Below, piece by piece: positions 5,397 to 33,130 of a stretch of 35,795 nucleotides of DNA. The position numbers and the translations under genes were made by a program. The notes below the pieces were generated by a model. That model was not told the DNA's origin. It worked only from the letters and a program-made list of their open reading frames with translations, and did no database searches. This stretch comes from a bacterium (GTDB taxonomy: Bacteria > JAMCPX01), in contig JAJYUJ010000027.1 in assembly GCA_021792615.1 (NCBI GenBank), positions 1-35,795 on the forward strand, given 5' to 3'. The number at the start of each line of letters is the position of its first letter. Position 1 is the first letter of the stretch.

Positions 5397-5609
5397 ATGA
5401 GTTATATTTGTAAAAAATGTAATAAACCCATTAGATACAGAAGCAAACTTGTAGACGGTTACCGGATACGGTACAAAGAGTGCGGCTGCGGATGGCTTGC
5501 TGTTGATGTTGTGTCTCCCGATGGCGAATCTGTGAAGGACGTAATAGGATTAAAGGCCGTTGAAAGGATGCTTCATTCGGGAAAAAGTCAGGTAAAGATT
5601 AATGGTTAA
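5397..5609 (+). CDS. Small zinc-ribbon-like protein
   Basis: A 70-residue protein opening with C-K-K-C at residues 5-8, followed by C29-G-C31 near KECGCGWLAVD. This is the cysteine layout of a small zinc ribbon or rubredoxin-like knuckle. The last 35 residues are polar and helical. No enzyme motif is visible. Its stop overlaps the next start by 8 bases (ATG at 5602), so it is translationally coupled to the diguanylate cyclase and is probably the first gene of that operon. Function unknown; a regulatory or nucleic-acid-binding role is only a guess. Confidence 0.65.
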   Translation: MSYICKKCNKPIRYRSKLVDGYRIRYKECGCGWLAVDVVSPDGESVKDVIGLKAVERMLHSGKSQVKING

Positions 5610-6669
5610 TGAACAAAAAGGTTTGACAACAAAAGAGGGTATCGTCGGTAATACAAAGAGGGATGAACGGGGCATAGAGATATTACACCAGATAGGTAAG
5701 ACGCTTACCTCTACTCTTGATATTAAAGAGGTTCTGTCAATCATCATGCAGAAGATCTCTGAATTATTAAAACCTTCCAACTGGTCATTATTGCTCCTTG
5801 ATGAAGAAAAACACGAATTGTTTTTCGAGATTGCTGTTGGTGAGAATTCGGATAAACTAAAGAATATGCGTCTTGCCATAGGAGAGGGCATTGCCGGATG
5901 GGTTGCTATGACCGGCGAGTCTGTGCTACTTACCGATGTAGCGAAAGATCCGCGTTTTGCCCCCCGGTTTGATAACGTAACGAACTTCGAGACCCATTCG
6001 ATTATCTGCGTACCGCTAAGGAGCAAGGGTAGGGTGCTCGGTGTTGTCGAACTTATCAATAATTTGCATGACGAAGATTTCGATCAGAACGATTTAACCA
6101 TACTGACGACCTTGACTGATTATGCTGCAATAGCCATAGAGAATGCAAAATATCTTCAAAAGGTACAGGAATTGACCATTAAGGATGATCTGACGACCCT
6201 TTATAACTCACGTTACCTGCACTTAATGCTCGAGAGTGAGATGGAACGATCGAAAAGATATGGGTTGCATTTCGCGATGATATTTCTCGATCTGGATCAT
6301 TTCAAGCTTGTGAACGATAAATACGGTCATATTATCGGCAGCAAGGTGTTGAAGGAAACTGCAGAGGTAATAAGATTGGAATTGAGAAAACCCGATATAC
6401 CCATACGGTATGGCGGTGATGAGTTTGTGGTCCTTCTTCCTGAAACGGACAAAAAAGGTGCATACAAGGTAACAGCAAGGATGAGAGAGTCATTGAACGA
6501 TCATGTATTTTTAAAAGAAGAGGGGTTTTCCATAAAGCTTACGGCAAGCTTTGGCATCGCTTCATTCCCTGAGGATACGGATAATACGCTTGACCTCGTA
6601 CGGTTATCCGACAGGGCCATGTATAAGATTAAAGAAACTACGCGGGACGCCATTGCATTGGCAGGATAG
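5602..6669 (+). CDS. GAF-GGDEF diguanylate cyclase
   Basis: This cytoplasmic enzyme is expected to join two GTP into c-di-GMP. Residues about 25-185 form a GAF sensor domain (GEGIAGWVAMTGE, VPLRSKGRVLGVVELIN). A short helix leads into a GGDEF domain (KDDLTTLYNSRYL, FLDLDHFKLVNDKYGH). The catalytic motif GGDEF is intact at residues 271-275. Five residues before it is RKPD at 262-265, the RxxD inhibitory site, so product feedback is likely. It overlaps the upstream zinc-ribbon gene by 8 bases and is followed after 49 bases by a MshEN-domain protein and pilT, placing its product next to a c-di-GMP receptor and a pilus motor. No transmembrane segment is present. Confidence 0.95.
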   Translation: MVNEQKGLTTKEGIVGNTKRDERGIEILHQIGKTLTSTLDIKEVLSIIMQKISELLKPSNWSLLLLDEEKHELFFEIAVGENSDKLKNMRLAIGEGIAGWVAMTGESVLLTDVAKDPRFAPRFDNVTNFETHSIICVPLRSKGRVLGVVELINNLHDEDFDQNDLTILTTLTDYAAIAIENAKYLQKVQELTIKDDLTTLYNSRYLHLMLESEMERSKRYGLHFAMIFLDLDHFKLVNDKYGHIIGSKVLKETAEVIRLELRKPDIPIRYGGDEFVVLLPETDKKGAYKVTARMRESLNDHVFLKEEGFSIKLTASFGIASFPEDTDNTLDLVRLSDRAMYKIKETTRDAIALAG

Positions 6670-6718: not shown

Positions 6719-7522
6719 ATGCTCATTCATAAAGAAAAACAAAAGCTCGGTGAATTGCTCAAAGACATCAATCTGTTGAATGAAGAACAGGTCAGACAGG
6801 CACTTACCTTACAAAAAGAACAGGGAATAAAATTCGGAGATGCCGTCGTAAAGCTCGGGTTTTTGACAAAAGATGACATAAACTGGGCGCTATCAAATCA
6901 GTTGAATATACCCTATATACCGGACCTCAGAGAAAAAGGCATCTTCGATCCTGACAGTGTAGCCTTATTGCCGTATGATTTTGCAAAGAAGCATTGTGTA
7001 ATCATTCTTGGCCAGATGCCCGATGCAACAAATATTGTCATAGCCGACCCATTAAACCAAACCGTTATAGGATACCTTGAACAGATAACGGGCAAACATA
7101 TAAATGTGTCAATTGGTGATGAGCAGGCAATACTGCGCATGATTGAAGATTTATACAAGAACAACAGCTGTATTGCGGCCGCAGAACAACACGGTGAAGG
7201 CAGTGTCTCACAGATAAAAACAGAGATCAATAAGGTGTTCAACGAGATAGGTTCGGGGTTTGATGCAGAGGTATATAAGAATGCACTCTGTGTTTCTTTC
7301 AATGAAAGAGCAAAGAAAAATGTCAGTGTTCGGCTCGTTTACCGGGATGCCGAGGTAGGAAAATATTTTATAGATATCATGATAGATAATGTTATAGGAG
7401 TGTTGTTCTCCAACAGGGATATAAATGAACAGCATATAAATTCATTATTGAAACTCAGTAACTTGCAGGGATTGATCGTCATCAAGATCACAGAAAAACT
7501 GACCATAGAGGCTTTGGAATAA
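6719..7522 (+). CDS. MshEN-domain (c-di-GMP receptor) protein with GxxExxY-like C-terminal domain
   Basis: Residues 1-150 form a stand-alone MshEN domain, the N-terminal part of GspE/PilB/MshE ATPases. Two tandem 24-residue c-di-GMP-binding motifs are visible at 9-32 (KLGELL...Q32) and 38-61 (KFGDAV...Q61), each with the LG/FG, small-residue and terminal Gln pattern. No ATPase domain follows. Residues about 165-267 instead align by eye with the GxxExxY/PDDEXK_3 family: helix EINKVFNEIGSGF, Y186-K-N-A-L, LVYRDAEVGKYFIDIMI with D219, then a helix and GLIVIK strand. The catalytic E-x-K is replaced (about V228 and F230), so it is probably an inactive nuclease fold. It sits between a diguanylate cyclase and pilT, 4 bases from the latter, suggesting an adaptor reading c-di-GMP for the pilus. 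Confidence 0.75.
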   Translation: MLIHKEKQKLGELLKDINLLNEEQVRQALTLQKEQGIKFGDAVVKLGFLTKDDINWALSNQLNIPYIPDLREKGIFDPDSVALLPYDFAKKHCVIILGQMPDATNIVIADPLNQTVIGYLEQITGKHINVSIGDEQAILRMIEDLYKNNSCIAAAEQHGEGSVSQIKTEINKVFNEIGSGFDAEVYKNALCVSFNERAKKNVSVRLVYRDAEVGKYFIDIMIDNVIGVLFSNRDINEQHINSLLKLSNLQGLIVIKITEKLTIEALE

Positions 7523-7526
7523 TATC

Positions 7527-8729
7527 ATGCCTAAAATTGACGGCTTGTTGAAATTATTAAAAGATAAAAAGGGTTCAGACCTTCATCTTGCTGTCGGTTC
7601 TCCTCCAACACTGCGTATCCATGGCGACCTTGAGAAAATGGAAGTAAGAGAACTTACACAACTAGACATGGAGAGCCTTTTATTCGAAATCATGGACAAT
7701 GACAAGAGGGATAAATTCCTCAGGGACAAGGAATATGATTTTGCGTATGAAGTAAAGGACATAGCACGGTTCAGGGTCAATGCATTTTATCAGCGAAAAG
7801 GCCTTGCCGCAGTCATGAGGCTTATCCCTGCAATAATACCGAGGCTCGAAGACCTCAATATGCCGGATGTGATGAAAAGTTTTTGTTTTTATGAAAGAGG
7901 GCTCGTCCTCGTTACCGGGCCTACCGGAAGCGGCAAATCAACGACACTGGCTGCACTCATCGATTTTATAAACAGGAATTCATCGGGGCACATTTTGACC
8001 CTTGAAGACCCCATTGAATTTGTTCATCAGAATGATTCCTGTCTTATCAATCAGCGGCAGATAGGCGAGCATAGTCATACATTTGCATCCGCACTTCGCT
8101 CAGCTTTGAGAGAAGATCCGGACGTTATTCTTGTCGGAGAAATGAGGGACCTCGAAACAATATCCCTTGCAATAACCGCCGCAGAAACCGGTCATCTCGT
8201 ATTCGGTACCCTCCATACATCGAGTGCGGCAAAGACTGTAGACAGGATTATAGACGCCTTTCCAAGGGACCAGCAGGAGCAAATACGGACAATGCTCTCA
8301 GAATCGCTGAAGGCAGTTGTGTCACAACAGCTCATCAAAACAATAGACGGCAAAGGCAGGGTCGCGGCATTGGAAATTATGCTGGTAACGCCTGCAATTT
8401 CAAATCTTATCAGAGAGGCAAAGACCTTCCAAATAGCATCTATGATACAGATAGGTAAAAAAGACGGTATGCAGGTGATGGATCAAGCGATACTGGACCT
8501 TTTAAAAATGAAAAAGATATCTGCAGCCGAAGCATACACACATGCGAACAATAAGGCAATGTTTGAACAATACATGTCGAAAGATATGAATATTTATATG
8601 GCATACGGTATGGAAACAGGTGCACAGGAATTATCGCCGAAAAAAGATATGACCGAAAAAATAACAAAAGAGACAACACCTGCAAACAAGATGCAAGAAG
8701 CGAACCAGCATAAGGGCATTTCCAAATAG
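7527..8729 (+). CDS. pilT: Type IV pilus retraction ATPase PilT
   Basis: This hexameric ATPase at the pilus base powers depolymerisation of the pilin fibre, giving twitching and DNA uptake. The N-terminal PAS-like part (KKGSDLHLAVGSPPTLRIHG) is followed by Walker A GPTGSGKS at residues 131-138. Next come the Asp box (LTLEDPIEFVH), Walker B (DPDVILVGEMRD), the His box (AETGHLVFGTLHT) and the PilT-type AISNLIREAK segment, a variant of AIRNLIRE. Residues beyond about 350 form a polar Lys/Glu/Thr/Asn-rich tail, making it roughly 50 residues longer than usual. It begins 4 bases after the MshEN-domain gene, so translation is coupled. The pilB, pilC and pilin genes are not in the window. Confidence 0.95.
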   Translation: MPKIDGLLKLLKDKKGSDLHLAVGSPPTLRIHGDLEKMEVRELTQLDMESLLFEIMDNDKRDKFLRDKEYDFAYEVKDIARFRVNAFYQRKGLAAVMRLIPAIIPRLEDLNMPDVMKSFCFYERGLVLVTGPTGSGKSTTLAALIDFINRNSSGHILTLEDPIEFVHQNDSCLINQRQIGEHSHTFASALRSALREDPDVILVGEMRDLETISLAITAAETGHLVFGTLHTSSAAKTVDRIIDAFPRDQQEQIRTMLSESLKAVVSQQLIKTIDGKGRVAALEIMLVTPAISNLIREAKTFQIASMIQIGKKDGMQVMDQAILDLLKMKKISAAEAYTHANNKAMFEQYMSKDMNIYMAYGMETGAQELSPKKDMTEKITKETTPANKMQEANQHKGISK

Positions 8730-8746: not shown

Positions 8747-8780
8747 CAGCAAACTATAGCGCCGGTTTTACGCTATGCTG
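8747..8780. terminator. Possible bidirectional hairpin between pilT and the HD-GYP gene
   Basis: ATAGCG (8756-8761) pairs with CGCTAT (8771-8776). CAGC further out (from 8747) pairs with the following GCTG across a bulge. It spans the 38-base convergent gap and the end of the minus-strand gene. There is no strong T-run on either strand, so termination strength is uncertain. Confidence 0.3.
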
Positions 8781-9883
8781 GCATCTACTTCTCTGAAAGA
8801 ATCATAGATTTCTTCGAATTTGCCGGATAATTTCTTGAATACCTCCAGCAACCCGGGATCGAAATGCTCCGGCATGGTCCTGCCATCACCCTTTGTTATG
8901 ATGTCGCAGGTCTGTTTGTGTGAGAATTGGGATTTATACGGCCTCTTACTGCGGAGTGCATCATATTGATCGATAAGCATGACAATCCTGCCGATCAATG
9001 GAATCTGTGTACCTTTCAGCCCCTTGGGGTAACCGCTGCCGTCCCACCTTTCGTGATGCGTGAGTGCTATTGTATACGCCATTTTCAGTACGTCGGAATC
9101 GGCATCTTTCAGAAGCGCTCCCCCTATTGTCGTATGTTGTTTTATGATTTCGAATTCTTCTTGTGTGAGTCTGCTGTTTTTTTGCAATATATGATCGGGA
9201 ATGCCTATTTTACCGATATCGTGCATTGGACTGGCATAGATGATATTTTCTCTGTCTGATTTCGACAGTCCCATGTAATTGCCGAGCATCAAGGAGTATG
9301 CACTGATACGTTTCAGGTGCTGGCCGGTAAATTCATCCTTGTATTCTGCAGCCCTCGTAAGCCTGAATACCGTATCTATATAAGCGTTTCTCAGCGTTTG
9401 GTTCAATTGGTTGAGGTGTTCGAGCGCTTCTTTGAGTTCTTTGGTTTTTTCCTGGACTGTTTTTTCAAGTGTATTATTGTAATTGTTCAGAAGATCGTTG
9501 TAAGACTTTACCTTGACGGAATTTTTTATCCTTATCTGCAGCTCATTTATGTCGAAGGGTTTGTTTAAGAAGTCATCCGCTCCCTTGCTTAATGCCTCAT
9601 ATTTCGCATTTTTATCGGACAGTGCCGTGATCATAATGACAGGTATATTCCATGTTGCAGGGGATGCTTTCAGCTTTCCGAGAATTTCGTATCCCGTAAT
9701 ATCGGGCAGCATTACATCGAGCAAGATTATATCCGGTTGGAATTCTTTGATCTTCTTAAGGGCAGTAGCACCGTTTGAAGCGCTATCGATAATATATCCT
9801 ATGGATTTTATTGTATCTGTGATAAGTTTTACTACCAATTGTTCATCATCAACAATAAGTATCTTATATGTTTTTTCAGGCAT
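8768..9883 (-). CDS. REC-HD-GYP response regulator (c-di-GMP phosphodiesterase, RpfG-like)
   Basis: A receiver domain (residues 7-122) has the acidic pair D12-D13, the phosphoacceptor D56 in LLDVMLPD, and MITAL and NKPF for the Thr/Ser and Lys sites. A coiled-coil helix (about 130-175) leads to an HD-GYP domain. This carries [24 protein letters not shown] and a downstream DQYDALRS, the metal and GYP motifs needed to hydrolyse c-di-GMP. All signature residues I can see are intact. It converges on the diguanylate cyclase/MshEN/PilT operon, so it likely closes the c-di-GMP cycle there. No cognate kinase is adjacent; the GAF-PAS kinase starting at 10093 is divergent and could be the partner. Confidence 0.94.
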
Positions 9884-17068: not shown

Positions 17069-17671
17069 TCAAATTGAAAGCATTTCGAACAGCAGCTTCA
17101 GCTTTTCTTTGGATTTCCTGCCGGGAGATATTTCCACTCCGCTCGATACATCGATTGCATACGGTTTATAGGTGGTTACTATTTTGTGCACATTATCCGG
17201 TGTTATACCGCCGGACAGGATGAATTTTATGCTGCCGGATAAACCGTTTAAAAGTGCATGGTCGAAAAGTTTGCCCGAGCCGCCGAATTCACTGGTATAA
17301 CTATCAAGCAAAACAATATTCAGTCCGGATTTGTTAATCTCGTTTATCGAAGCGGCGTCTTGAACCCTGAATGCCTTTATCGCTTTATTACCGATCTCTG
17401 TAATCATTCGCAGCGGCTCATTGCCGTGCAGTTGTACATAATGAAGTCCTAACGTGCCGGTGATTGTTTGGATGACGTCAATATTTTCATCGACAAATAC
17501 ACCCACGGTCGATACGAAAGCGGGCAGGTGTTTGATAATCTCAATTGCCTGTTCGGGTTTTATATACCGAGGACTTTTCTTATAAAAGACAAATCCAATC
17601 GCGGCGGCACCATAATCGCAAGCAGTCAGGGCATCCTCTCTTGAAGTTATGCCGCAAATCTTGACCTTCAT
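17069..17671 (-). CDS. trpF: Phosphoribosylanthranilate isomerase
   Basis: TrpF isomerises N-(5-phosphoribosyl)anthranilate to CdRP in a (beta/alpha)8 barrel. The 200-residue sequence has KICGIT with the catalytic Cys at the N-terminus, FVFYKKSPRYI, QLHGNE, the catalytic Asp in LLDSY, FGGSGK, LSGGITPDNV and the phosphate-binding IDVSSGVEISPGRKS. The frame is open to 17761, but MKVKICGIT is the natural start. It is last of the trp genes, separated from trpB2 by 107 bases that hold an inverted repeat, unlike the tight spacing elsewhere in the operon. Confidence 0.95.
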   Translation of the reverse strand: MKVKICGITSREDALTACDYGAAAIGFVFYKKSPRYIKPEQAIEIIKHLPAFVSTVGVFVDENIDVIQTITGTLGLHYVQLHGNEPLRMITEIGNKAIKAFRVQDAASINEINKSGLNIVLLDSYTSEFGGSGKLFDHALLNGLSGSIKFILSGGITPDNVHKIVTTYKPYAIDVSSGVEISPGRKSKEKLKLLFEMLSI

Positions 17672-17691
17672 AATGGGTCTTTCAACGTCCA

Positions 17692-17744
17692 CCCTCCCTT
17701 TTCTTCGGCCCATCCTTCGGATGGGTACCCGCGTCAAGGGAGGG
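17692..17744. repeat. Nested inverted repeat between trpB2 and trpF
   Basis: CCCTCCCTT (17692-17700) is inverted as AAGGGAGGG (17736-17744). Inside is a perfect hairpin CCCATCC-TTC-GGATGGG (17709-17725). It falls within the trp transcript and could slow transcription or set mRNA ends between trpB2 and trpF, or be a small intergenic repeat. Confidence 0.5.
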
Positions 17745-17778
17745 ATTGAGAAATGATCCACCAGACGGCAACAATATT

Positions 17779-19128
17779 TTATACCTGAGGGAGATCTTTG
17801 AGAGACTTCTTGATTTCCGCTTCCGGGTATTCATAGTCCTGGAGCTTACCACGTAAATAACTGTCATAGGCAACAAGATCGAAGTGTCCGTGTCCGCTGA
17901 GGTTAAAAAGTATGACCTTTTCTTTGCCTTCTTCCTTCGCTTTCTTAGCCTCCTGTATCGCACTCAGGATTGCGTGCGCCGATTCCGGAGCCGGAATAAT
18001 GCCCTCTGTTCTTGCAAATGTTATGGCAGCTTCAAACACCGGGAGCTGATTGTAAGCAATGGCCTCTATGAGCCCCTCGTGATAGAACTGGCTTACCAGG
18101 GGAGAATCGCCGTGATACCTCAAACCGCCTGCATGAATGCCGGGAGGCATGAAATTATGTCCGAGCGTATACATCTTGATGAGCGGTGTCAGTCCTGCCT
18201 CATCGCCGAAGTCGTAAGTGTAAGGTCCTTTTGTAAGGGTGGGACACGATGCAGGTTCCACAGCTATCGCCCGCAGGTTTTTTCCTGCAAATTTATCCAT
18301 GAGAAATGGAAACGCAATACCGCCAAAATTGCTGCCTCCGCCGCATGAGGCAATGACAATATCGGGATACTCGTTGATCTTTTTGAACTGTTCTTTGGCC
18401 TCAAGGCCGATGACGCTTTGATGGATCAGGACGTGGTTTAAGACACTCCCGAGGGAATAATTGGTGTCGTTGTGCGACGCTGCATCCTCGACAGCTTCGC
18501 TTATGGCAACGCCGAGGCTGCCCGGCGATGCAGGGTCTGCCTCAAGTACCTTCCTGCCGGCATTTGTCAGTTCTGTCGGGCTTGCATGCACATGTCCGCC
18601 CCATGTTTCCATCATAATTCTTCGGTACGGTTTTTGATCGTAGCTGACTCTTACCATATACACGGTTACGTCGATTCCCAGGAGTTTGCCCGCCATGGAA
18701 AGGGCGCTGCCCCATTGTCCTGCGCCGGTTTCCGTTGCGAGCCTCTTAATACCTTCTTTCTTGTTGTAATAAGCCTGTGCAACGGCAGTATTGGGTTTAT
18801 GACTGCCCGGAGGACTTACACTTTCATTCTTATAGTATATATGGGCAGGCGTTTTGAGATAAGCTTCAAGGTTGTGTGCTCTCACTAAAGGCGTGGGCCT
18901 CCACATCGTGTATATCTTGAGCACCTCTTCCGGTATATCAATCCACCTTTTCGTTGATACCTCCTGTTCGATCAATGCCATAGGAAAGATCGGCTTGAGA
19001 TCATCGGGGCTTATCGGCTTTTTTGTCCCGGGGTGAAGAACCGCTGCCGGTGGTTTAGGCATATCCGCCATAACATTATACCACCGCCTTGGTATTTCTG
19101 TTTCATCCAAAAGTATCTTTGTCTGCAT
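17779..19128 (-). CDS. trpB2: TrpB2-type tryptophan synthase beta chain
   Basis: A 449-residue PLP enzyme of the TrpB2 (TIGR01415) group, longer than classical TrpB (about 400). Visible are the [11 protein letters not shown] start of the fold, the PLP lysine in [22 protein letters not shown], and the phosphate-binding [10 protein letters not shown]. TrpB2 enzymes condense indole and serine and lack the normal TrpA contact surface, so they act alone or for indole salvage. The start is good: AAGGAG lies 6 bases ahead of the ATG. It begins 2 bases after the trpC stop. No trpA accompanies it in this operon. Confidence 0.95.
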
Positions 19129-19130
19129 TT

Positions 19131-19952
19131 TTATCTCCTTTCGATAAATGAACTTAGTCTAAATTTATTTATAAACTCTTGCAATTTATTTACCGGTGAC
19201 TCTGCTCGCATAAAAGCCTCTCCAATCAAAAAACCGTTTACCCCGAGCTTCAAGAGCTCGGATATTGTGTCCGTCGATGCTATACCGCTTTCTGCTATCG
19301 TTATTATGTGTTTTGGCATGTTCTGCATTATGTATTCCACAATATCCATGTTTGTGGCAAACGTTTCGAGGTTCCGGGAATTTATGCCTATTATTTTAGC
19401 ACCTGCATCAACAGCTGTTTTGAGTTCGTCCTCATTATGTATTTCGACCAGCGGCTCCATGCCGAGCTTCCGGGAAAGCCCGATAAAGCCGGTAAGTTGT
19501 TTAGCCAATATTTTAACGATGAGCAGAATGGTATCTGCCCCCAGTGCTCTTGATTCGTAGATCTGAAATTCATCGACAATAAAATCTTTCCTTAAGACAG
19601 GGATGTTCACGACTTCCTTTACTGCTTTGAGATCTGCAAGACTGCCGCCAAAATATTGTTCGTCGGTAAGAACGGATATCGCAGACGCTCCGCCCGAGGC
19701 AAAACCCTGCGCGATAGCCTTTACATCGGGTTCTTTAATGAGTTCTCCCTTTGACGGTGACCTCCTCTTTATCTCGGCAATGATGCACGGTGGTTCACTT
19801 TCCGAAACAGCTTCAAGAAATGACATCGCAGGTTTTGCGGAGTCTGCTGATTTAATAACGGTACCGGGATCCGCGTTTTGTTTTTTTAACTGGACTTCTT
19901 TTTGTTTGTTTGCAACTATACCGGAAAGAAAATTCGGTTTGTCGATGTTCAT
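19131..19952 (-). CDS. trpC: Indole-3-glycerol phosphate synthase
   Basis: TrpC closes the ring of CdRP to indole-3-glycerol phosphate. The 273-residue barrel shows [14 protein letters not shown] with the catalytic Lys, [44 protein letters not shown] and IAESGI. All core motifs are intact. Its ATG overlaps the trpD stop by 4 bases (ATGA at 19949-19952). It is not fused to TrpF, unlike the E. coli enzyme. The product needs TrpA to release indole, yet trpA is absent here. Confidence 0.96.
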
Positions 19953-20971
19953 TGTTTGATACCCTGAACGCTTGCTTTTTTGAATTCGTTCAATTTTGCC
20001 ATTGCCCTGCCGGAATCAATGACGTCCTTAACGATGGGCAGAGCTTCTTGTACATTGGCTGTTACACCAGCAATGTACAATGCAAACGCACTGTTAATCT
20101 CGGTCATATCCCGCATCGGACCTTTTGTGCCGCTGAGAACATCTATGAGAAGCGAAGCATTGTATTGTGCGTCTCCGCCTTTTAAGGCTTCCAAAGGTGA
20201 GAGTTTATACCCATATTCTTCCGGATTGAAAATATATGACTGCACCCTCCCGTCCCTGAGCTCCGAGATGTCCGTCGTACCACTTATGGTTATTTCATCC
20301 GTAGCATCGCTTCCGTGGACCACGCACGCAGATACACTCCCGAGATTTTTTAAAACATAGGCAATTGTTTCCGTTAGTTTTGCATCATAAACACCGACCA
20401 GTTGATGGCGTGCCCCCGCTGGGTTTGTAAGCGGACCGAGCATATTGAAGATCGTTCTGATGCCGATCTCTTTTCTCACACCGATGGCAAACCTCGTTGC
20501 CCTATGGTACAAGGGGGCAAAAAGGAAACACATCCCTGTAGTATGTAAAAGGTCTTCAGCCCTGGCACTGTCGGCATTTATATCTATGCCCAGCGCCTCC
20601 AGTACATCGGCACTGCCGCTCTTGGATGAAACAGAACGGTTCCCGTGTTTTGCAACCTTTACTCCTGCTCCCGCAGCAACGAATGCCGTAGCAGTGGACA
20701 CATTGAACGTCCCTTTTTTATCGCCGCCGGTACCACACGTATCGATGATGACATCGTCGCCGGTGTTTACTTTCAAGGCCTTTTCCCGCATCACCTTTGC
20801 TGCTCCGGTTATCTCATTAATGGTCTCTCCCTTCATCCGGAGTGCCGTAATAAAAGATGCAATCTGAGCATCCGTCGTGCTGCCTGACATGATCTCGTTC
20901 ATAACGAGTTCCATTTCGTTTTCGGACAAAGAGATATTCTGTATAACCTTATCGATAGCTTCTTTTATCAT
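19949..20971 (-). CDS. trpD: Anthranilate phosphoribosyltransferase
   Basis: TrpD transfers phosphoribose from PRPP to anthranilate. The 340-residue sequence has CGTGGDKKGTFNVSTATAF for PRPP binding, KHGNRSVSSKSGSADVLEALG, and PLYHRATRFAIGVRKEIGIRTIFNMLGPLTNPA. It is not fused to the amidotransferase TrpG, which is the separate gene just upstream. Seven bases separate it from trpG, and its stop overlaps trpC, so translation is coupled through the operon. Confidence 0.96.
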   Translation of the reverse strand: MIKEAIDKVIQNISLSENEMELVMNEIMSGSTTDAQIASFITALRMKGETINEITGAAKVMREKALKVNTGDDVIIDTCGTGGDKKGTFNVSTATAFVAAGAGVKVAKHGNRSVSSKSGSADVLEALGIDINADSARAEDLLHTTGMCFLFAPLYHRATRFAIGVRKEIGIRTIFNMLGPLTNPAGARHQLVGVYDAKLTETIAYVLKNLGSVSACVVHGSDATDEITISGTTDISELRDGRVQSYIFNPEEYGYKLSPLEALKGGDAQYNASLLIDVLSGTKGPMRDMTEINSAFALYIAGVTANVQEALPIVKDVIDSGRAMAKLNEFKKASVQGIKQ

Positions 20972-20978
20972 CCTGATA

Positions 20979-21554
20979 TTATTGAATCATATTTATAAAA
21001 TTCGCAAGTATCTTCTTACCGTCTGCAGTAAGAATTGATTCCGGATGGAACTGGACACTTTCTATAAGAAGTTTCTTGTGCCGTATTGCCATGATTTCGT
21101 GGTCCTCTTCGGATTCAGCGCTAATGATAAATTCACCGGACAAGGTTTTTCTGTCTATCACCAAAGAGTGATACCGCGTCGCTGTGAACGGGTTGTCAAG
21201 CCCGGAGAATATTGTGTTGCCGTCATGATGTATCAGGGATGTTTTGCCGTGGTAGATCTTCTGCGCTTTGACTATTCGGGCGCCAAAGGCATAACCGATC
21301 GCCTGGTGGCCGAGACATACGCCAAACAGGGGATAAACACCTGCATATTGTTTTATAACATCCACGGAGATGCCTGCTTCAGCCGGGGTTGACGGACCAG
21401 GTGATATAACGATGGCGTTGATCCCCAGTGTTTTTATGTCGCCTGTTTTGAGGGCATCGTTCCGGTAGACGAGCACATCAACTCCGAGCTCGCCGAAGTA
21501 CTGGACAAGGTTGTAGGTAAAAGAATCGTAGTTATCTATGACAAGTATCTTCAT
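20979..21554 (-). CDS. trpG: Anthranilate synthase glutamine amidotransferase subunit
   Basis: TrpG supplies ammonia from glutamine to TrpE. The 191-residue class-I amidotransferase has the nucleophile Cys in GVCLGHQAIGYAFG, the oxyanion segment VISPGPSTPAEAGIS, and the His-Glu pair in QFHPESILT. It starts 4 bases after trpE and 7 bases before trpD. It could also serve PabB, as dual-use subunits do in some bacteria, but the position between trpE and trpD argues for tryptophan. Confidence 0.95.
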   Translation of the reverse strand: MKILVIDNYDSFTYNLVQYFGELGVDVLVYRNDALKTGDIKTLGINAIVISPGPSTPAEAGISVDVIKQYAGVYPLFGVCLGHQAIGYAFGARIVKAQKIYHGKTSLIHHDGNTIFSGLDNPFTATRYHSLVIDRKTLSGEFIISAESEEDHEIMAIRHKKLLIESVQFHPESILTADGKKILANFINMIQ

Positions 21555-21558
21555 AAGA

Positions 21559-23043
21559 TTACGTTATCTCTGCCGCTTTTTTTACGGCATCCATCAACGC
21601 CTGTGCCTTTGATCTTGTTTCGAAGTACTCGTTTTCAGGCAGGGAATCATAAACTATTCCAGCACCGGACTGAATATAAATCCCCTTTTTATCGACAAAT
21701 GCAGTACGTATTGCAATACAGGTATCCATACTTCCCGTATAGCTTATATAGCCGACTGCTCCGCCGTAAGGGCCCCGGTTTTCTTTCTCAAGATGTTCAA
21801 TTATTTCCATTGCCTTGACCTTTGGAGCACCCGAGAGTGTTCCTGCCGGGAATGTAGACTTCACGATATCTACGGCATCCTTGTCATCAAGGACACTGCC
21901 GCTTACCTCTGATACGATATGCATAACATGGGAATACCGTTCCACGGTCATAAGTTCATCCACCCGGACGCTGCCTGTCTTAGCAATTCTCCCGATATCA
22001 TTCCTTGCAAGATCGACAAGCATGACGTGTTCCGCTTTTTCTTTTTTATCTTCAAGCAATTCTTTTTCGAGCGCCTGGTCCTCCTCGCTGGTTTTACCGC
22101 GCTTTCTCGTGCCCGCAATGGGACGTATGGTTACCTTGCCGCCCTCAAACCTTACGAGCACCTCGGGAGAGGAACCGATGAGATATTTATCACCGAGATC
22201 AAAATAAAACATGTAGGGGGATGGATTGATAAGCCTCAGTGCCCGGTAAAACGATATGAGGTCAATCTTTGACGGCGAAAAGAACCGCTGTGACAATACG
22301 ACCTGAATGATGTCGCCTTCTTGTATGTGAGATTTCCCTTTGAGAACCACCTGTTCGTATTCCTGCTGTGTCATGTTCGATCTGAAGGGTTTGGCCGCAG
22401 GTGTTCTTTGCTGTTTTTTTACCGGCAACGGCTTCCCGAGTATGGAGAGGACTTTTTTTACGGAGTCCATCGCAGTCTTATATGCCTTCTGTGTGTTACC
22501 GTTCTTGATAAGGGCATTTGACAAGACGATAAGGGTATGCCGCAGGTTGTCGAAGATCACAAGCTTATCCGTAAAAAGCAGAAACACATCATCGAAACCT
22601 GGAGACTGTTTATGGAGATCCGGTACCTTCTCAAACGTCTTCACAATATCATATCCAAAATAACCGACAGCACCGCCGACAAACCCCGGCAGGCCTTTTA
22701 TAATTGCAGGCCTGTACCGCTTGAATTCTGTTTTTAAGAGTTCAAGAGGGTCCGGAACACCGTGATATTTTTTTGTTGTCCCATTTTCTGTTATGAAGAC
22801 ATCCCGGTTTTTTACCCTGAACACGACCGATGGATCGAAACCGATAAAACTGTACCGTGCCCATTTCTCACCGCCTTCGACGCTCTCAAGGAGAAAGGGG
22901 TACTTCAGATGTTTGAGTTTCAAGAGTACCGAAACCGGCGTTTCGATATCCGACAGTATTTCCGTGTAAACGGGTATTATGTTTGCTTGCTTTGCAAGGT
23001 CGGCGAATTCCGGGTAGGATGGATAAAAAGTCTTTGTTTGCAT
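21559..23043 (-). CDS. trpE: Anthranilate synthase component I
   Basis: TrpE makes anthranilate from chorismate. The 494-residue enzyme carries FLLESVEGGEKWARYSFIG with the LLES element that binds tryptophan, so feedback inhibition is expected. It also carries IQEGDIIQVVLSQRF, the conserved SSPEVLVR and RPIAGTRKRG of the chorismate site, LVDLARNDIGRIA, FPAGTLSGAPKVKAMEII and GAVGYISYTG. It lies 25 bases behind a periplasmic TPR gene, so there is no room for its own leader or attenuator. The ribosome binding site is weak. Confidence 0.96.
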   Translation of the reverse strand: MQTKTFYPSYPEFADLAKQANIIPVYTEILSDIETPVSVLLKLKHLKYPFLLESVEGGEKWARYSFIGFDPSVVFRVKNRDVFITENGTTKKYHGVPDPLELLKTEFKRYRPAIIKGLPGFVGGAVGYFGYDIVKTFEKVPDLHKQSPGFDDVFLLFTDKLVIFDNLRHTLIVLSNALIKNGNTQKAYKTAMDSVKKVLSILGKPLPVKKQQRTPAAKPFRSNMTQQEYEQVVLKGKSHIQEGDIIQVVLSQRFFSPSKIDLISFYRALRLINPSPYMFYFDLGDKYLIGSSPEVLVRFEGGKVTIRPIAGTRKRGKTSEEDQALEKELLEDKKEKAEHVMLVDLARNDIGRIAKTGSVRVDELMTVERYSHVMHIVSEVSGSVLDDKDAVDIVKSTFPAGTLSGAPKVKAMEIIEHLEKENRGPYGGAVGYISYTGSMDTCIAIRTAFVDKKGIYIQSGAGIVYDSLPENEYFETRSKAQALMDAVKKAAEIT

Positions 23044-27688: not shown

Positions 27689-30600
27689 TTATACCGATAA
27701 TATGGACATACCCAATTTATTTCTTAGGAGAAAATGGCCGTCAGAAAGGTAGAATTGCAGGATGTCCTGCATGAGCTCGGATGAGGTGAAGATATCTTTT
27801 CTTTTCTCTTTGTTCGAGAGGAGAGACGCATCGCCTATGTGCCACTTTACGAGAGATGAAAACAACGGTTCGGTATCGCCCACGAAAAATGCACCAGTTC
27901 TCGCGCCCGTCATTTCAATGCCTTTAAACCATTCATCCATATACGTATCCGGCATCTTGAGGTATTTCTTAATGGGTTCATCGAGTGCCGCGCGTTGTTT
28001 TTTCGTAAGTATACCGTTTAAGGTATTTGTCACAGCAGAAAGACCGGGATTTTTATCGTTAGGGGTCGATGCCGAGGGGTTTAAGGCTTTAACCAATGCA
28101 TGTATAAACAGCGCAAACTTTTCTTTTCCAAGTTTTACCGGCAACACCAAACCGGATTTTATGTACGTTAAATATTCCGTTAGTATAAAAGCTCTTTCCT
28201 GAGCGGATAAATCCGATAAAGAAGGGATATGGACAATCAAAGAGGGAGGATCCGTATTTTCGATTACGATCTTAAAGTTACCCTTTGTTGTCTGGTAAAT
28301 GTCTATATCTTTTATGCCGAGCAGTTGTAACAGCGTTCCGTATTCCTGCCATGAGGTCGATTTCGTCGTTATCCGTTCCTGTTTCCCGGCGCCGTAGAGC
28401 TTCAGATCGGGTTTAAACAGACTTGCGCCGTAATCGGGGAAGAAGGTGAGAATATCTTTCAACGGCCCCCTTGTTTTCATGTGCATGATGTGGGAAAGGA
28501 ACAGATCGTCCGATACCGGAAGTTTCGGATGCCTGGGCTGTTTGTTCTTGTTCGCCTCTACGAATATGCGTTCAAGGTCTTTTTCTTCACCAAGCAGTTT
28601 CAAGGTGCTGAAGTATAAGAACACCCTGTCATAGTCCTTTTTTTGTTCATAAAATTTAGAAAGGAACCTTATTGCAGGAATATTTTCCGGCATATACTTC
28701 AACACGATTCCATACTCCCGAACGGCATCGGATATCATTGTTTTATTTTTGGAAAACAGTTCTGCAAGAGAAAAATGTGCATGGACATCCGCCGGTTCTA
28801 TATTGAGGATCGTCTGATACTGCTGGATGGCGAGTTCGTTATTATTTATTTTCGTTGCATAGAGTTCACCGAGTTCTTTTATTAACGGGAGTACGTTCTT
28901 TGGTTCTTTCGGCAGGAGGATCTTGATAAACTTCTGGTATAGGTCTGCCTTCCCCGTCAGATTCCCCTCCAGTTCAAATGTTTTTCCCAGGCACCTGAGT
29001 ACCGGTATGGAAGATGGTTCTTTCTTTAAAGCCTCAAGATAGTATTTCTTTGCCGTTCCGGTGTCGTTTTTAAATTCAATATATATATCTCCCAGCCTCA
29101 TAGCAGAAGCAACAAAATTATCACTGTTCTTCTCGATCTTGAGGAGTTTCAGGAGAATCTCAATTTCATTGTCGATATTGGATTGTTCCCGGTAAATCTG
29201 GATAAGCTCATTGCATATCTGCGTGTTGTCCGGTATGATTGCCATTGCTTCCCGTAAAAGAGGAATTGCACCGTTCAGATCGTAGGTCTTATCATGCTTG
29301 AGCTTTGCAATCTTGATCAATACCTGAGCCCTGTCCAGCGGCTTGTCGAGTACTTTCGATAATTTTGCCAGCACCTCTATCTCGAGTTCGTAGTTGCCCA
29401 GCGTAGCGGTCAGCTCGTCGAGTGTTATGAGGCTGTCCATGTCCTTGCCGTTTATGTCAACCGCTCTGAGCAAATACTCTACTGCCTGTTGTATGTTGCC
29501 GAGCCTCTTTGCTATGTCAGACAATATTTTATAGAGGGGAAACAATTGTTCCGGAAGCAACTCGTGTTCGTGGGCGTAGGTTATGTTTTTTAATACATCG
29601 TACGCTTCTTTATACAGACCGACGGCGTATGCGGATTCTCCGTAAGCGAGCCGGTAATCGATATTGGATGGACTTAAATTGTATGCAGCCTTGTAAGCCT
29701 GATAAGCGTCATTCGATGCGGCAAGGCCTTTCAATACGGTACCATATTCAAAGTTTATCTCTGCCTTCATGTCATCAAGCATGTTGCTCAGTGAGGTAGC
29801 CTCTTTATAAAACGCTGCGGCTTTATCGGACATTTGCTGGGATGCTGCAAGCCGGGCCGCCTTGATGAGAATGTCTCCGTTTGTTTTATCTATGCGGAGA
29901 GCGGCCTCATACGACTCGATTGCACCTTTTTCATCGTGTAATCGGTGAACAAGAAGCTCCGACGATTTCATGAGATATTCGAGTTTTATAGATTTCTCAT
30001 CGATACTTTGTGCAGCACCTTTATACAGTTCATTCAGACTCTGGAATTCACCTTGCTTCAACAGTAGCGGTTCAAGCAGCCGGTAAGTTTCAAGATCCGA
30101 CGGTTTGAATCTTACGATGTCCTGATACAAGGCAATAGCACCGTTCGTATCGTTTAAATTTTCTGCTTTTATGACTGCAAGTTTTTTTTGCAATAAGATT
30201 TTGTCTTCGGATGCCTGGAGGTGCGACAACCACAGATCGTACATTGCCGATAATGCAGGATAATCGTGCATGGTTTCATACATCCCGGAAAGGGCTGTAA
30301 ATGCTGCATTGTTATTCGGCTGCAGAATGAGTATGTCCTTATAAAGACCGATCGCCGCTTGTTTGTCATCTCCGGAAAGCTCCGCCAGTTCGAGCAATAA
30401 ATCCACCTTCTGCTCTCCGGTTATATTGAATTTGAGCGTCTCCTGTATCGTGAGCATCAAATCTTTTGTATTGTTCAGCTTTTTATACAGGGAGGCCAAT
30501 TGCATATAAATACCGGCATTTCTCTTTCCCGATTTGATGAGATCTTCGAGTGTTCTGACCGCAGATTTCGGATCACCGAGGTCCTTTTCCTGTATCGAGG

Positions 30601-33130
30601 CACGCCGCATGCTCATGGTTATTATGTCCTCATCGGATTTGCTGAGTTCGGCTTCTTTTTTGAGGACGCTTACGAGAAGGGCGTAATCTTTGCCCTCGGT
30701 ACATAGCCTTTCCAGCCAACGGAAGTATTCAAGGTTTTCCGGCTCTTTCTCCGTCAGTTTCATGAGATATATGGATGCAGGCCTGTAATCCTTTGTTTCT
30801 TCATATGCGGAGGCCAGCTTCTTATAGATTTCGTTTATATTTTCGATGTCTGTCGATATCTTTATCAGCGCTTCGAATGCGACGATAACCGCTTCATAAT
30901 CATGGTTTATATAGGCAGAATACCCGTACGCCTCCGCATACCTCTTTTCGTTCCTGTTCAGTTCAAAGGCCTTTTTATAGAATTGTGATGAGTCCTGCTG
31001 TCTTCCTAATTTATCGAGGATCCGTGCATACTTAAACAAGAATTCCGGAAGTTGTTCAGGTTCGACAATATTGTTTTTGATAGAAAAATTGAAGTATGGC
31101 TCCGCCTTGTCCCATAGACCAGCATTGAAGGAGAGTGCCGAAAGGGATAAATTTGCATCATGGTTGCCGGGTTCCAATGCCAGTACCTGTTCAAACGTTG
31201 TGATTGCCTTATCGGGCAAGGCGAGTTTTTCGTACCGGATATGAGCGATTTTCAGCAGCAGTTCCACTTTTGTTTTCTCTGAAGGACCGGTCTTATCGAT
31301 CATAAATGAATAAAGCTTTTCAAAGCCTGCATAGTCGCCGGTTGTTTCGAATAACCTTTTTAAGATGTCTATGACATAACCTGCCGATGGGCTGGATTCG
31401 AGTGCCTCCCAGAGGTACTGCTGGGCTTTTTTGACATCGATGCCTCTGTCAAAAAGCAGGGAACCGAGTTCTGCGAGAACATCGTATTTGTTGTCCGCTA
31501 TAGTCAGTTTTTTCTCGAGTATTGCGGCAAGGTCAGTGTAGTTGCCGGTTTCCCGGTAGATCCGTTCCAGAGAGGATAGGGCGGCTTCGTTGCGCGGATC
31601 CGAAGAAAGTATCTCATGGTACAACTCCGCCGCTGATTCGTAATTTATTGAGTGGGTAAGATAGATATCTCCCAGTGTAAGCTGGAGCGAAAGCTTTTTA
31701 TCGCTGTCCGTTACAGCGGGCAGCATATTGATTATAGCCTGCTTTGCTTCCTGCCATTTCTCCGACAATACGTAAAGGGATATGAGTTTATCAGAATATT
31801 CCTTATTTCCGGGATCAAGGGCTGATGCTCTCAGGTAACTATCGATTGCATACTCATAATGAGAGAAACCCTGAAGATACGTATCTCCGAGCGATGCCCA
31901 TAAGGGAGCAGAATCTTTCTGATCTTCGTTGCCGTTGAGCCTTTCAAGATAAAATGTCACAAGACCGTTGTAATCTTCTGTTTCTTTATAAATGTGTTCG
32001 AGTGCTGCGTCGTTGGATTGATCTCCCGTGATGCCGGAAAGCGTGTGTATCCACTGCTTTGCAGTGTCGTAATCTTTGTTTTCTATCAGCAGGGGGATAG
32101 CCCTTTTATACAGGGCCGTCTTTTGGTCGTTGCCGTCTTCAACTTCGACAAGCTTTTTTATGGTGTCGGTCATATCAACGGATGCTCCGATCTGAGTAAA
32201 TACATCGAGTGCCGCATAGAGCAGGGGCTTATCGTCCGGTTGTGCGGATAGAGCGTTTTTGAGAAAGGGCAGTGCAGCTGCAGTATCTCCAAGTTTCGTA
32301 TAGCATAATCCAATATTCCCATCGAGGCCGGCGATTTCTCCCGGTGCAGCATCGCTTTTCCTTTTCATCAGGATGGACAACAGGAGTACCGGTTCATCGA
32401 AAGACGAATATATGCCGCTTAATTTCCGGACTATTTGTTGCTGGTCACCCGCGTCTGATGCAAGGGCCATCTCGTAATTATATGCAGTCTCATAAGAGTC
32501 ATCCATTGCCTTTTCGTATATGCCTGCAAGTGAAGTATAAAAGCCGGCGAGGTCTTCAGGGGTGTTAAAGGTGTTTATAAAGAGATCCTTGTGTTCGATA
32601 ATACTCGAAAACATACCCTGATCGAGTAATGTATCGAACAATTGCTTGGTGGCTTGGGGCAAAGGTGCGTTTGAGCTTGCAAGGAACGATGTTGCCGCAT
32701 CATACATACCGAGTGAGATGTAGCTTTTTATGAGCATGGTGCTCAGTTCTGCAGTCCGTTCCGGGTCCTTTGATAATCGGCATTCACCCTCCAGCAGAAT
32801 CGCGAGCCCGGCAGAGGCATGAGACTGTTCCAGTATCTTTTTTAGTTTGTCTACAACACCCAGTTCGTAGGGATTGAGTTCGAGTGCATCGAGATAAAAT
32901 TCTATAGACTTGTTCGTATCGGACAACCGGTCGGCGTACGTGTCGGCGACATCTATGATGTAGTTGACGCGATCATCGTCCTCCTCAGAAAGGCTGAATA
33001 ACTTTTCATAGATTTCTATCAGCTTATCCCATTGTTCATTTGCTTTGTATATCTCCGAGAGTCCTTTTAATGCAGAGATATTTTCCGGTTCAAGCTTTAG
33101 AATCTCGAGATAGTAGGTAAGATTGTCCAC
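27689..33130 (-). CDS. Giant tetratricopeptide-repeat protein, 1813 residues
   Basis: No signal peptide or membrane helix is visible, so it is probably cytoplasmic. It is built from dozens of TPR-like helix pairs from residue 1 to about 1500 (for example LKLEPENISALKGLSEIYKA and repeated A..LY.-type 34-residue units), implying a long superhelical scaffold. Residues about 1535-1813 are not TPR and hold a mixed alpha/beta domain (VSDDLFLSHIMHMK..., TKGNFKIVIENTDPPSL, GDTEPLFSSLVKWHIGD). I cannot name this domain; it looks like the C-terminal domain of other very long TPR proteins, but that is inference. The start is GTG at 33130 with GGGAA and AGG just upstream. It ends 1 base before the heptosyltransferase gene, so it is coupled to LPS assembly. 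Confidence 0.85.
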   Translation of the reverse strand: MDNLTYYLEILKLEPENISALKGLSEIYKANEQWDKLIEIYEKLFSLSEEDDDRVNYIIDVADTYADRLSDTNKSIEFYLDALELNPYELGVVDKLKKILEQSHASAGLAILLEGECRLSKDPERTAELSTMLIKSYISLGMYDAATSFLASSNAPLPQATKQLFDTLLDQGMFSSIIEHKDLFINTFNTPEDLAGFYTSLAGIYEKAMDDSYETAYNYEMALASDAGDQQQIVRKLSGIYSSFDEPVLLLSILMKRKSDAAPGEIAGLDGNIGLCYTKLGDTAAALPFLKNALSAQPDDKPLLYAALDVFTQIGASVDMTDTIKKLVEVEDGNDQKTALYKRAIPLLIENKDYDTAKQWIHTLSGITGDQSNDAALEHIYKETEDYNGLVTFYLERLNGNEDQKDSAPLWASLGDTYLQGFSHYEYAIDSYLRASALDPGNKEYSDKLISLYVLSEKWQEAKQAIINMLPAVTDSDKKLSLQLTLGDIYLTHSINYESAAELYHEILSSDPRNEAALSSLERIYRETGNYTDLAAILEKKLTIADNKYDVLAELGSLLFDRGIDVKKAQQYLWEALESSPSAGYVIDILKRLFETTGDYAGFEKLYSFMIDKTGPSEKTKVELLLKIAHIRYEKLALPDKAITTFEQVLALEPGNHDANLSLSALSFNAGLWDKAEPYFNFSIKNNIVEPEQLPEFLFKYARILDKLGRQQDSSQFYKKAFELNRNEKRYAEAYGYSAYINHDYEAVIVAFEALIKISTDIENINEIYKKLASAYEETKDYRPASIYLMKLTEKEPENLEYFRWLERLCTEGKDYALLVSVLKKEAELSKSDEDIITMSMRRASIQEKDLGDPKSAVRTLEDLIKSGKRNAGIYMQLASLYKKLNNTKDLMLTIQETLKFNITGEQKVDLLLELAELSGDDKQAAIGLYKDILILQPNNNAAFTALSGMYETMHDYPALSAMYDLWLSHLQASEDKILLQKKLAVIKAENLNDTNGAIALYQDIVRFKPSDLETYRLLEPLLLKQGEFQSLNELYKGAAQSIDEKSIKLEYLMKSSELLVHRLHDEKGAIESYEAALRIDKTNGDILIKAARLAASQQMSDKAAAFYKEATSLSNMLDDMKAEINFEYGTVLKGLAASNDAYQAYKAAYNLSPSNIDYRLAYGESAYAVGLYKEAYDVLKNITYAHEHELLPEQLFPLYKILSDIAKRLGNIQQAVEYLLRAVDINGKDMDSLITLDELTATLGNYELEIEVLAKLSKVLDKPLDRAQVLIKIAKLKHDKTYDLNGAIPLLREAMAIIPDNTQICNELIQIYREQSNIDNEIEILLKLLKIEKNSDNFVASAMRLGDIYIEFKNDTGTAKKYYLEALKKEPSSIPVLRCLGKTFELEGNLTGKADLYQKFIKILLPKEPKNVLPLIKELGELYATKINNNELAIQQYQTILNIEPADVHAHFSLAELFSKNKTMISDAVREYGIVLKYMPENIPAIRFLSKFYEQKKDYDRVFLYFSTLKLLGEEKDLERIFVEANKNKQPRHPKLPVSDDLFLSHIMHMKTRGPLKDILTFFPDYGASLFKPDLKLYGAGKQERITTKSTSWQEYGTLLQLLGIKDIDIYQTTKGNFKIVIENTDPPSLIVHIPSLSDLSAQERAFILTEYLTYIKSGLVLPVKLGKEKFALFIHALVKALNPSASTPNDKNPGLSAVTNTLNGILTKKQRAALDEPIKKYLKMPDTYMDEWFKGIEMTGARTGAFFVGDTEPLFSSLVKWHIGDASLLSNKEKRKDIFTSSELMQDILQFYLSDGHFLLRNKLGMSILSV

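What the first reader, a model, noticed from the sequence alone, without database searches (positions are those of the whole stretch)
6719..7522. MshEN c-di-GMP domain fused to an apparently dead GxxExxY/PDDEXK-like domain
The N-terminal half carries both 24-residue MshEN motifs but the ATPase that normally follows is missing. By eye, the C-terminal half aligns with the GxxExxY (PDDEXK_3) family from EINKVF through GLIVIK. D219 is kept, but the family Glu is A183, and the E-x-K is replaced by about V228 and F230. This would make a c-di-GMP-reading adaptor with a pseudo-nuclease fold beside pilT, an architecture I do not recognise.
Basis: partly seen in the sequence, partly recalled or inferred. 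Interest (0 to 1): 0.65.

Follow-up and report, generated by a model that had tools for sequence, protein, structure and literature searches.

The report
PilT-linked c-di-GMP adaptor, dead-nuclease tail
In one small uncultivated bacterial phylum, a c-di-GMP-sensing domain has been fused to a nuclease-fold domain that has lost its cutting residues, and this hybrid gene travels with its own copy of the pilus-retraction motor PilT, suggesting a private switch by which c-di-GMP could control pilus retraction.

Summary
The 267-aa ORF at 6719-7522 is a complete MshEN (c-di-GMP receptor) domain joined to a diverged GxxExxY/PDDEXK_3 domain. Both halves score above Pfam cut-offs. A profile made only from the fusion C-terminal domains finds stand-alone GxxExxY proteins in 37 unrelated genomes. 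A predicted structure of that domain (pLDDT 86) matches PD-(D/E)XK nucleases.

The catalytic loss is real and fixed. All 6 orthologues (down to 50% identity) lack the motif Glu, the E-x-K pair and the Gln that 21-22 of 22 stand-alone homologues keep; only the Asp remains. Purifying selection argues against decay.

The fusion occurs in 6 of 9 genomes of its phylum and in no other genome searched. It always lies 4-12 nt upstream of one particular PilT paralogue, which occurs in the same 6 genomes and is missing from the same 3. A REC-HD-GYP phosphodiesterase gene is nearby in all 6.

Best reading: a separately encoded c-di-GMP input subunit for that PilT, with the dead nuclease fold reused as a docking or dimerisation module. 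The architecture and gene linkage are shown; c-di-GMP binding and PilT contact are inferred. I rate it a new variant of a known kind.

The parts
6719..7522 (+). MshEN-pseudoPDDEXK fusion protein, 267 aa
   Evidence: Intact ORF; orthologues in 5 other genomes of the phylum at 50-96% identity
6743..7159 (+). MshEN domain, residues 9-147 (MshEN_N motifs K9-Q32 and K38-Q61, then MshEN_C with invariant D110)
   Evidence: PF05157, NF053729, phmmer to 5htl/6f8l; motif columns
7205..7519 (+). Catalytically deficient GxxExxY/PDDEXK_3 domain, residues 163-267
   Evidence: PF13366 and TIGR04256; reciprocal profile search; AF2 pLDDT 86, pTM 0.77; Foldseek to viral PD-(D/E)XK
7265..7267 (+). Codon A183, position of the GxxExxY Glu
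   Evidence: A/A/A/P/T/K in the six fusions, E in 22/22 stand-alone homologues
7373..7375 (+). Codon D219, the only active-site residue kept
   Evidence: D in 28/28
7400..7408 (+). Codons V228-F230, position of E-x-K
   Evidence: V/I, L/I/V, F/L in fusions; E and K in 22/22 stand-alone
7527..8729 (+). PilT paralogue ('PilT-C'), starts 4 nt after the fusion stop; Walker A GPTGSGKST, DPDVILVGEMRD and NLIRE motifs intact
   Evidence: TIGR01420 486 bits; sequence; same 6 of 9 genomes as the fusion
5602..6669 (+). GAF-GGDEF diguanylate cyclase (RYGGDEF intact), 49 nt upstream
   Evidence: PF00990 1.6e-40; sequence; also upstream in G001 and G003
8768..9883 (-). REC-HD-GYP c-di-GMP phosphodiesterase ([16 protein letters not shown]), converging on pilT
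   Evidence: PF13487 7.9e-33; 72% identical copy immediately upstream of the module in G008; orthologue in 5 of 6 module-positive and 0 of 3 module-negative genomes

Best explanation
The gene encodes a non-enzymatic c-di-GMP input subunit dedicated to one PilT paralogue. The MshEN half binds c-di-GMP as it does in PilB/MshE extension motors. The nuclease-fold half cannot cut nucleic acid and has become a protein-protein (docking or dimerisation) module that couples the bound state to the co-encoded PilT, or to the pilus platform that PilT engages. In effect an MshEN 'N1 domain' is supplied in trans to a retraction motor that lacks one. The neighbouring diguanylate cyclase and/or REC-HD-GYP phosphodiesterase would set the local c-di-GMP level. 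Shown: domain architecture, conserved loss of the active site, purifying selection, fixed pairing with this PilT, nearby c-di-GMP enzymes. Inferred: c-di-GMP binding, contact with PilT, and the direction of the effect.
For: Domains. Catalytic loss fixed in 6/6 orthologues against 0/22 stand-alone relatives. Purifying selection on the C-terminal domain (omega 0.05-0.29 where dS is computable). Single origin of the fusion domain (100/100). Fusion directly upstream of the same PilT paralogue in 6/6 genomes with gaps of 4-12 nt, although flanking genes differ between genera. That paralogue is absent from the same 3 genomes that lack the fusion, while two other PilT paralogues are kept. REC-HD-GYP nearby in 6/6; orthologous copies sit downstream in one genus and upstream in another. 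MshEN residues that contact c-di-GMP (PMC5013675) are kept or conservatively replaced.
Against: No binding or interaction data exist. R>K at both stacking arginines, L39>F and the variable G18 could weaken binding. The two genes are adjacent, so a missing contig would remove both from an incomplete MAG; the three negative genomes are 82%, 92% and 92% complete. Linkage supports a shared pathway, not physical contact. About ten stand-alone MshEN proteins checked in other phyla are not beside pilT, so no wider precedent supports the model.
Confidence: 0.55

Rival explanations
1. c-di-GMP-gated nucleic-acid-binding protein: the dead PDDEXK domain still binds DNA or RNA without cutting, and c-di-GMP controls expression of the pilT operon or handling of DNA during pilus-mediated uptake.
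For: The domain descends from a nuclease family and keeps the fold and D219. MshEN is fused to varied outputs elsewhere (PMC5013675).
Against: Conserved features of the stand-alone family outside the active site are also lost: three residues after motif I, the Q-x-x-x-Y motif and the NF(G)...KR C-terminus. No added DNA-binding domain was detected by Pfam.
Confidence: 0.15
2. c-di-GMP-regulated nuclease with a rebuilt active site, using D219 plus fusion-specific acidic or basic residues such as D223, E237, H239 and K256.
For: These residues are invariant in 6/6 fusions. Some PD-(D/E)XK families are known to relocate catalytic residues (established knowledge, not tested here).
Against: The positions of the Glu, E-x-K and Gln hold A/P/T/K, V/I, F/L and S/A residues. 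H239 and acidic 223 are already common in stand-alone relatives, so they are not new.
Confidence: 0.08
3. c-di-GMP-binding protein that merely shares an operon with this PilT and acts elsewhere, for example on an extension motor, a chemosensory system or exopolysaccharide.
For: Gene linkage does not prove contact. MshEN proteins act in several pathways (PMC5013675).
Against: Only the pilT partner is constant while the other neighbours change. Fusion and PilT paralogue share one presence/absence pattern.
Confidence: 0.17
4. Decaying or chance fusion without function.
For: The active site is lost.
Against: Open frame in all six genomes, 50-96% identity, omega well below 1, invariant fusion-specific residues.
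Confidence: 0.02

Closest known systems
MshE / PilB-type extension ATPases with an N-terminal MshEN domain (V. cholerae MshE; PMC5013675)
   Same: Same two-motif MshEN_N plus MshEN_C; part of the type IV pilus context
   Different: No ATPase; a nuclease-fold domain follows; partner gene is a retraction (PilT) rather than an extension motor
GxxExxY / PDDEXK_3 proteins (PF13366, TIGR04256)
   Same: Homologous C-terminal domain by sequence in both directions; same predicted fold; D219, G178, G180, Y186, G214 kept
   Different: Motif Glu, E-x-K and Gln lost; fused to MshEN; three residues shorter after the motif-I helix; single diverged clade
FimX / PilZ c-di-GMP adaptors of PilB (PMC8389850)
   Same: Separate c-di-GMP-binding protein proposed to act on a pilus motor, with an enzyme fold that lost catalysis (FimX EAL/GGDEF, established knowledge)
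   Different: Unrelated domains; the linked motor is PilT rather than PilB
PilT/PilU retraction ATPases (TIGR01420)
   Same: The partner gene is a full member with intact motifs
   Different: PilT proteins are not known to carry a c-di-GMP-binding domain (established knowledge); here one is encoded next door

Membership tests
MshEN domain (PF05157 / NF053729) | Profile score above curated cut-off | tested here: met
   40.7 bits vs 23.1; 48.6 vs 38; orthologues also pass
MshEN domain (PF05157 / NF053729) | Two 24-residue motifs with a 5-residue spacer and conserved contact residues | tested here: met
   K9-Q32 and K38-Q61; L10, G11, L29, Q32, G40, D41, G47, Q61 kept; R9/R38 to K, L39 to F, G18 variable
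MshEN domain (PF05157 / NF053729) | Binding of c-di-GMP | not testable with these tools
   Needs ITC or DSF
GxxExxY / PDDEXK_3 (PF13366, TIGR04256) | Profile score above curated cut-off | tested here: met
   39.1 vs 22 bits; TIGR04256 35.0 vs 35, marginal; reverse search to 3.6e-10
GxxExxY / PDDEXK_3 (PF13366, TIGR04256) | The Glu of the G-x-x-E-x-x-Y motif | tested here: not met
   A/A/A/P/T/K in fusions, E in 22/22 stand-alone homologues
PD-(D/E)XK nucleases | Catalytic D...E-x-K | tested here: not met
   D219 kept; E lost, K replaced by F/L in 6/6
PD-(D/E)XK nucleases | Common core fold | tested here: met
   AF2 pLDDT 86, pTM 0.77 with alpha-alpha-beta-beta-beta-alpha-beta-beta order; Foldseek 1.4e-6 to a viral PD-(D/E)XK nuclease; PDB matches weak, best E 0.08, mostly PD-(D/E)XK
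PD-(D/E)XK nucleases | Nuclease activity | not testable with these tools
   Needs an enzyme assay
PilB/MshE extension ATPases | C-terminal T2SSE ATPase with Walker motifs | tested here: not met
   No T2SSE match in the 267-aa protein
PilT retraction ATPase (neighbour gene) | TIGR01420 score and Walker A/B and NLIRE-type motif | tested here: met
   486 bits vs 319; motifs in sequence

The most novel reading that the evidence does not exclude
Pilus retraction itself is directly c-di-GMP-controlled in these bacteria: a separately encoded MshEN subunit, built on a retired nuclease fold, plugs into a specialised PilT and acts as its second-messenger switch, mirroring the built-in MshEN of extension motors.
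Probability: 0.4. Interest if true: 0.72.

Novelty: new variant of a known kind. Interest (0 to 1): 0.5.

Why it matters
c-di-GMP control of type IV pili is known through extension motors (MshE, PilB) and PilB adaptors. Whether c-di-GMP affects PilT-driven retraction independently of the extension motor was stated as open by Floyd et al. 2020 (PMC7096442). A c-di-GMP-receptor domain fixed beside one PilT paralogue and absent from the two other PilT loci gives a direct test case. It is also a clear, conserved case of a PD-(D/E)XK domain that lost catalysis and was kept, apparently as a signalling part; the GxxExxY family has almost no literature (2 papers in the library).

Tried and rejected
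Full-length AF2 from 6 sequences was too weak to use (pLDDT 60, pTM 0.31). A joint alignment with MshEN and GxxExxY fragments misaligned the two halves and was not used for folding. The sequence profile found no solved structure of the GxxExxY family, and Foldseek against PDB gave no confident match. Searching other phyla for the same fusion found none: the C-terminal profile over 386 genomes gave only GxxExxY proteins without MshEN outside this phylum, judged by their frame lengths and the ORFs read; the full-length profile over 195 genomes of a phylum rich in MshEN proteins plus two small phyla gave no fusion, though 56 and 57 had no positive control of their own. About ten stand-alone MshEN proteins elsewhere are not next to pilT on the stretches held, some of which are short contigs. 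Promoter and terminator scans found no more than shuffles. Two attempts at a literature search on inactive PD-(D/E)XK domains failed on syntax, so published examples were not surveyed. An attempt to check the empty site in module-negative genomes through rpsB was not informative.

Full report
OBSERVATION. The window holds an intact 267-aa ORF at 6719-7522 on the + strand. Pfam finds MshEN (E=2.5e-10) and PDDEXK_3 (E=1.1e-9), both above the curated cut-offs. NCBIfam finds the MshE-type c-di-GMP motif at residues 9-61 above cut-off, and GxxExxY exactly at its cut-off. phmmer aligns residues 2-113 with the V. cholerae MshE structure 5htl, E=8e-15, without gaps over the two motifs. No ATPase domain is present.

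MSHEN HALF. In MshE, contacts to c-di-GMP come from R9, L10, G11, the residue after it, L25, L29, Q32 and the matching R38-Q61 set, with one Asp from MshEN_C (PMC5013675). The numbering happens to coincide. Across six orthologues L10, G11, L29, Q32, G40, D41, G47 and Q61 are invariant; R9 and R38 are Lys (one Arg at 9), L39 is Phe, L54 is Ile, L25 is Val/Ile, and G18 is variable. The paper reports that changes at Arg9, Asp12 and Gln32 alter affinity by no more than about five-fold, so binding is plausible but unproven.

C-TERMINAL HALF. Homology to the GxxExxY family was tested in the reverse direction. A profile built from the six fusion C-terminal domains alone was run over 386 genomes; it recovered GxxExxY proteins (mostly 120-150 aa, stand-alone) in 37 genomes outside this phylum, best E=3.6e-10. 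An AF2 model from an alignment of 6 fusion and 22 stand-alone sequences has mean pLDDT 86 and pTM 0.77. Foldseek's two best viral matches have probability 1.00, one of them an annotated PD-(D/E)XK nuclease (R4TGU4, E=1.4e-6), and other named matches are largely nucleases of this superfamily. Against PDB nothing is confident; the weak top hits are mostly PD-(D/E)XK enzymes. The model is not independent of the sequence homology, because stand-alone sequences were in its alignment.

CATALYTIC LOSS. In 22 of 22 stand-alone homologues the motif Glu, Asp, E and K are present, and the downstream Gln in 21. In the six fusions the Glu position is A, A, A, P, T, K; the Asp is kept; the E-x-K Glu falls in a one-residue gap beside V/I228; the Lys is F or L; the Gln is S or A. 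The loss is shared by orthologues at 50% identity, so it is old. The fusion domains form one clade with full support on a long stem. dN/dS of the domain is 0.05-0.29 wherever dS is computable (several pairs are saturated), so it is under purifying selection. Residues invariant in the fusions but not in stand-alone proteins (K187, R197, G227, E237, I240, K256) are candidates for a new interface (inference).

DISTRIBUTION AND NEIGHBOURHOOD. The phylum has 9 held genomes. The fusion is in 6 (G000, G001, G003, G004, G007, G008) and not in G002, G005, G006. The phylum carries three PilT paralogues. Two are in most or all genomes, one of them beside PilB. The third is the window's PilT (TIGR01420, 486 bits), found in exactly the six fusion-positive genomes and missing from the other three. 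In all six it starts 4-12 nt after the fusion stop. Because the genes are adjacent, assembly gaps could remove both together; with completeness of 82%, 92% and 92% in the negatives, all three being artefacts is unlikely but one could be. Upstream neighbours differ: a GAF-GGDEF cyclase in G000, G001 and G003, a REC protein in G007 and G008 (55% identical to each other), unknown in G004 where the contig starts. A REC-HD-GYP gene lies within about 6 kb in all six: orthologous copies (72-96%) in five genomes, downstream in the window's genus (convergent where the strand can be read in G000, G001 and G003) but directly upstream in G008, and a different one (31%) in G007. The three module-negative genomes have no copy closer than about 44%. 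The constant elements are therefore fusion, PilT and a c-di-GMP phosphodiesterase.

MECHANISM. The simplest reading is that a retraction motor, which by itself has no c-di-GMP-binding domain, is given one in trans. MshEN reads c-di-GMP, the dead nuclease fold acts as docking or dimerisation part, and the neighbouring cyclase or phosphodiesterase sets the signal. I cannot say whether c-di-GMP would stimulate or block retraction. In V. cholerae, c-di-GMP acts on the balance of extension and retraction through MshE, and a direct effect on PilT was left open (PMC7096442). Confidence: architecture and active-site loss about 0.95; functional link with this PilT about 0.75; the full adaptor model 0.55.

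COMPARISON AND NOVELTY. The protein is a member of the MshEN family. It is a homologue of GxxExxY/PDDEXK_3 but fails that family's defining catalytic residues, so I do not file it as a GxxExxY nuclease. It works most like the PilB adaptors FimX/PilZ, without being related to them. No other genome searched has the fusion, and about ten stand-alone MshEN proteins elsewhere are not beside pilT. MshEN fused to diverse outputs is already known (PMC5013675), so this is a new variant of a known kind.

Noticed in passing
L060:4598-6108 (G000:C28), also L062:3670-5147 (G007:C17): Tandem pair of short MshEN proteins (271 and 232 aa) with no known output domain, each ending in a similar helical-looking tail (LLxxLLIxKGI...); MshEN pairs of this kind were hit in most genomes of the phylum.
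   Followed up: partly
L061:3708-4913 (G000:C54): 401-aa MshEN protein with a long unassigned C-terminal region; no Pfam domain beyond MshEN.
   Followed up: partly
L083:1432-2280: GxxExxY domain with intact catalytic residues followed in frame by what reads as an RNase H-like domain (283 aa) in an unrelated genome; RNase H by eye only.
   Followed up: no
27689-33130 (-): 1813-residue protein made mostly of TPR repeats, next to a heptosyltransferase-like gene.
   Followed up: no
17069-23043 (-): Tryptophan biosynthesis genes in a row (PRA isomerase, PLP enzyme, IGPS, phosphoribosyltransferase, anthranilate synthase I).
   Followed up: no
L001-L003 record titles: Orthologue contigs come from MAGs labelled 'bacterium' or 'Deltaproteobacteria' (WY, FK sediment); the phylum may be the acid-mine group Ca. 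Acidulodesulfobacterales (PMC6776010), a guess that was not tested.
   Followed up: no
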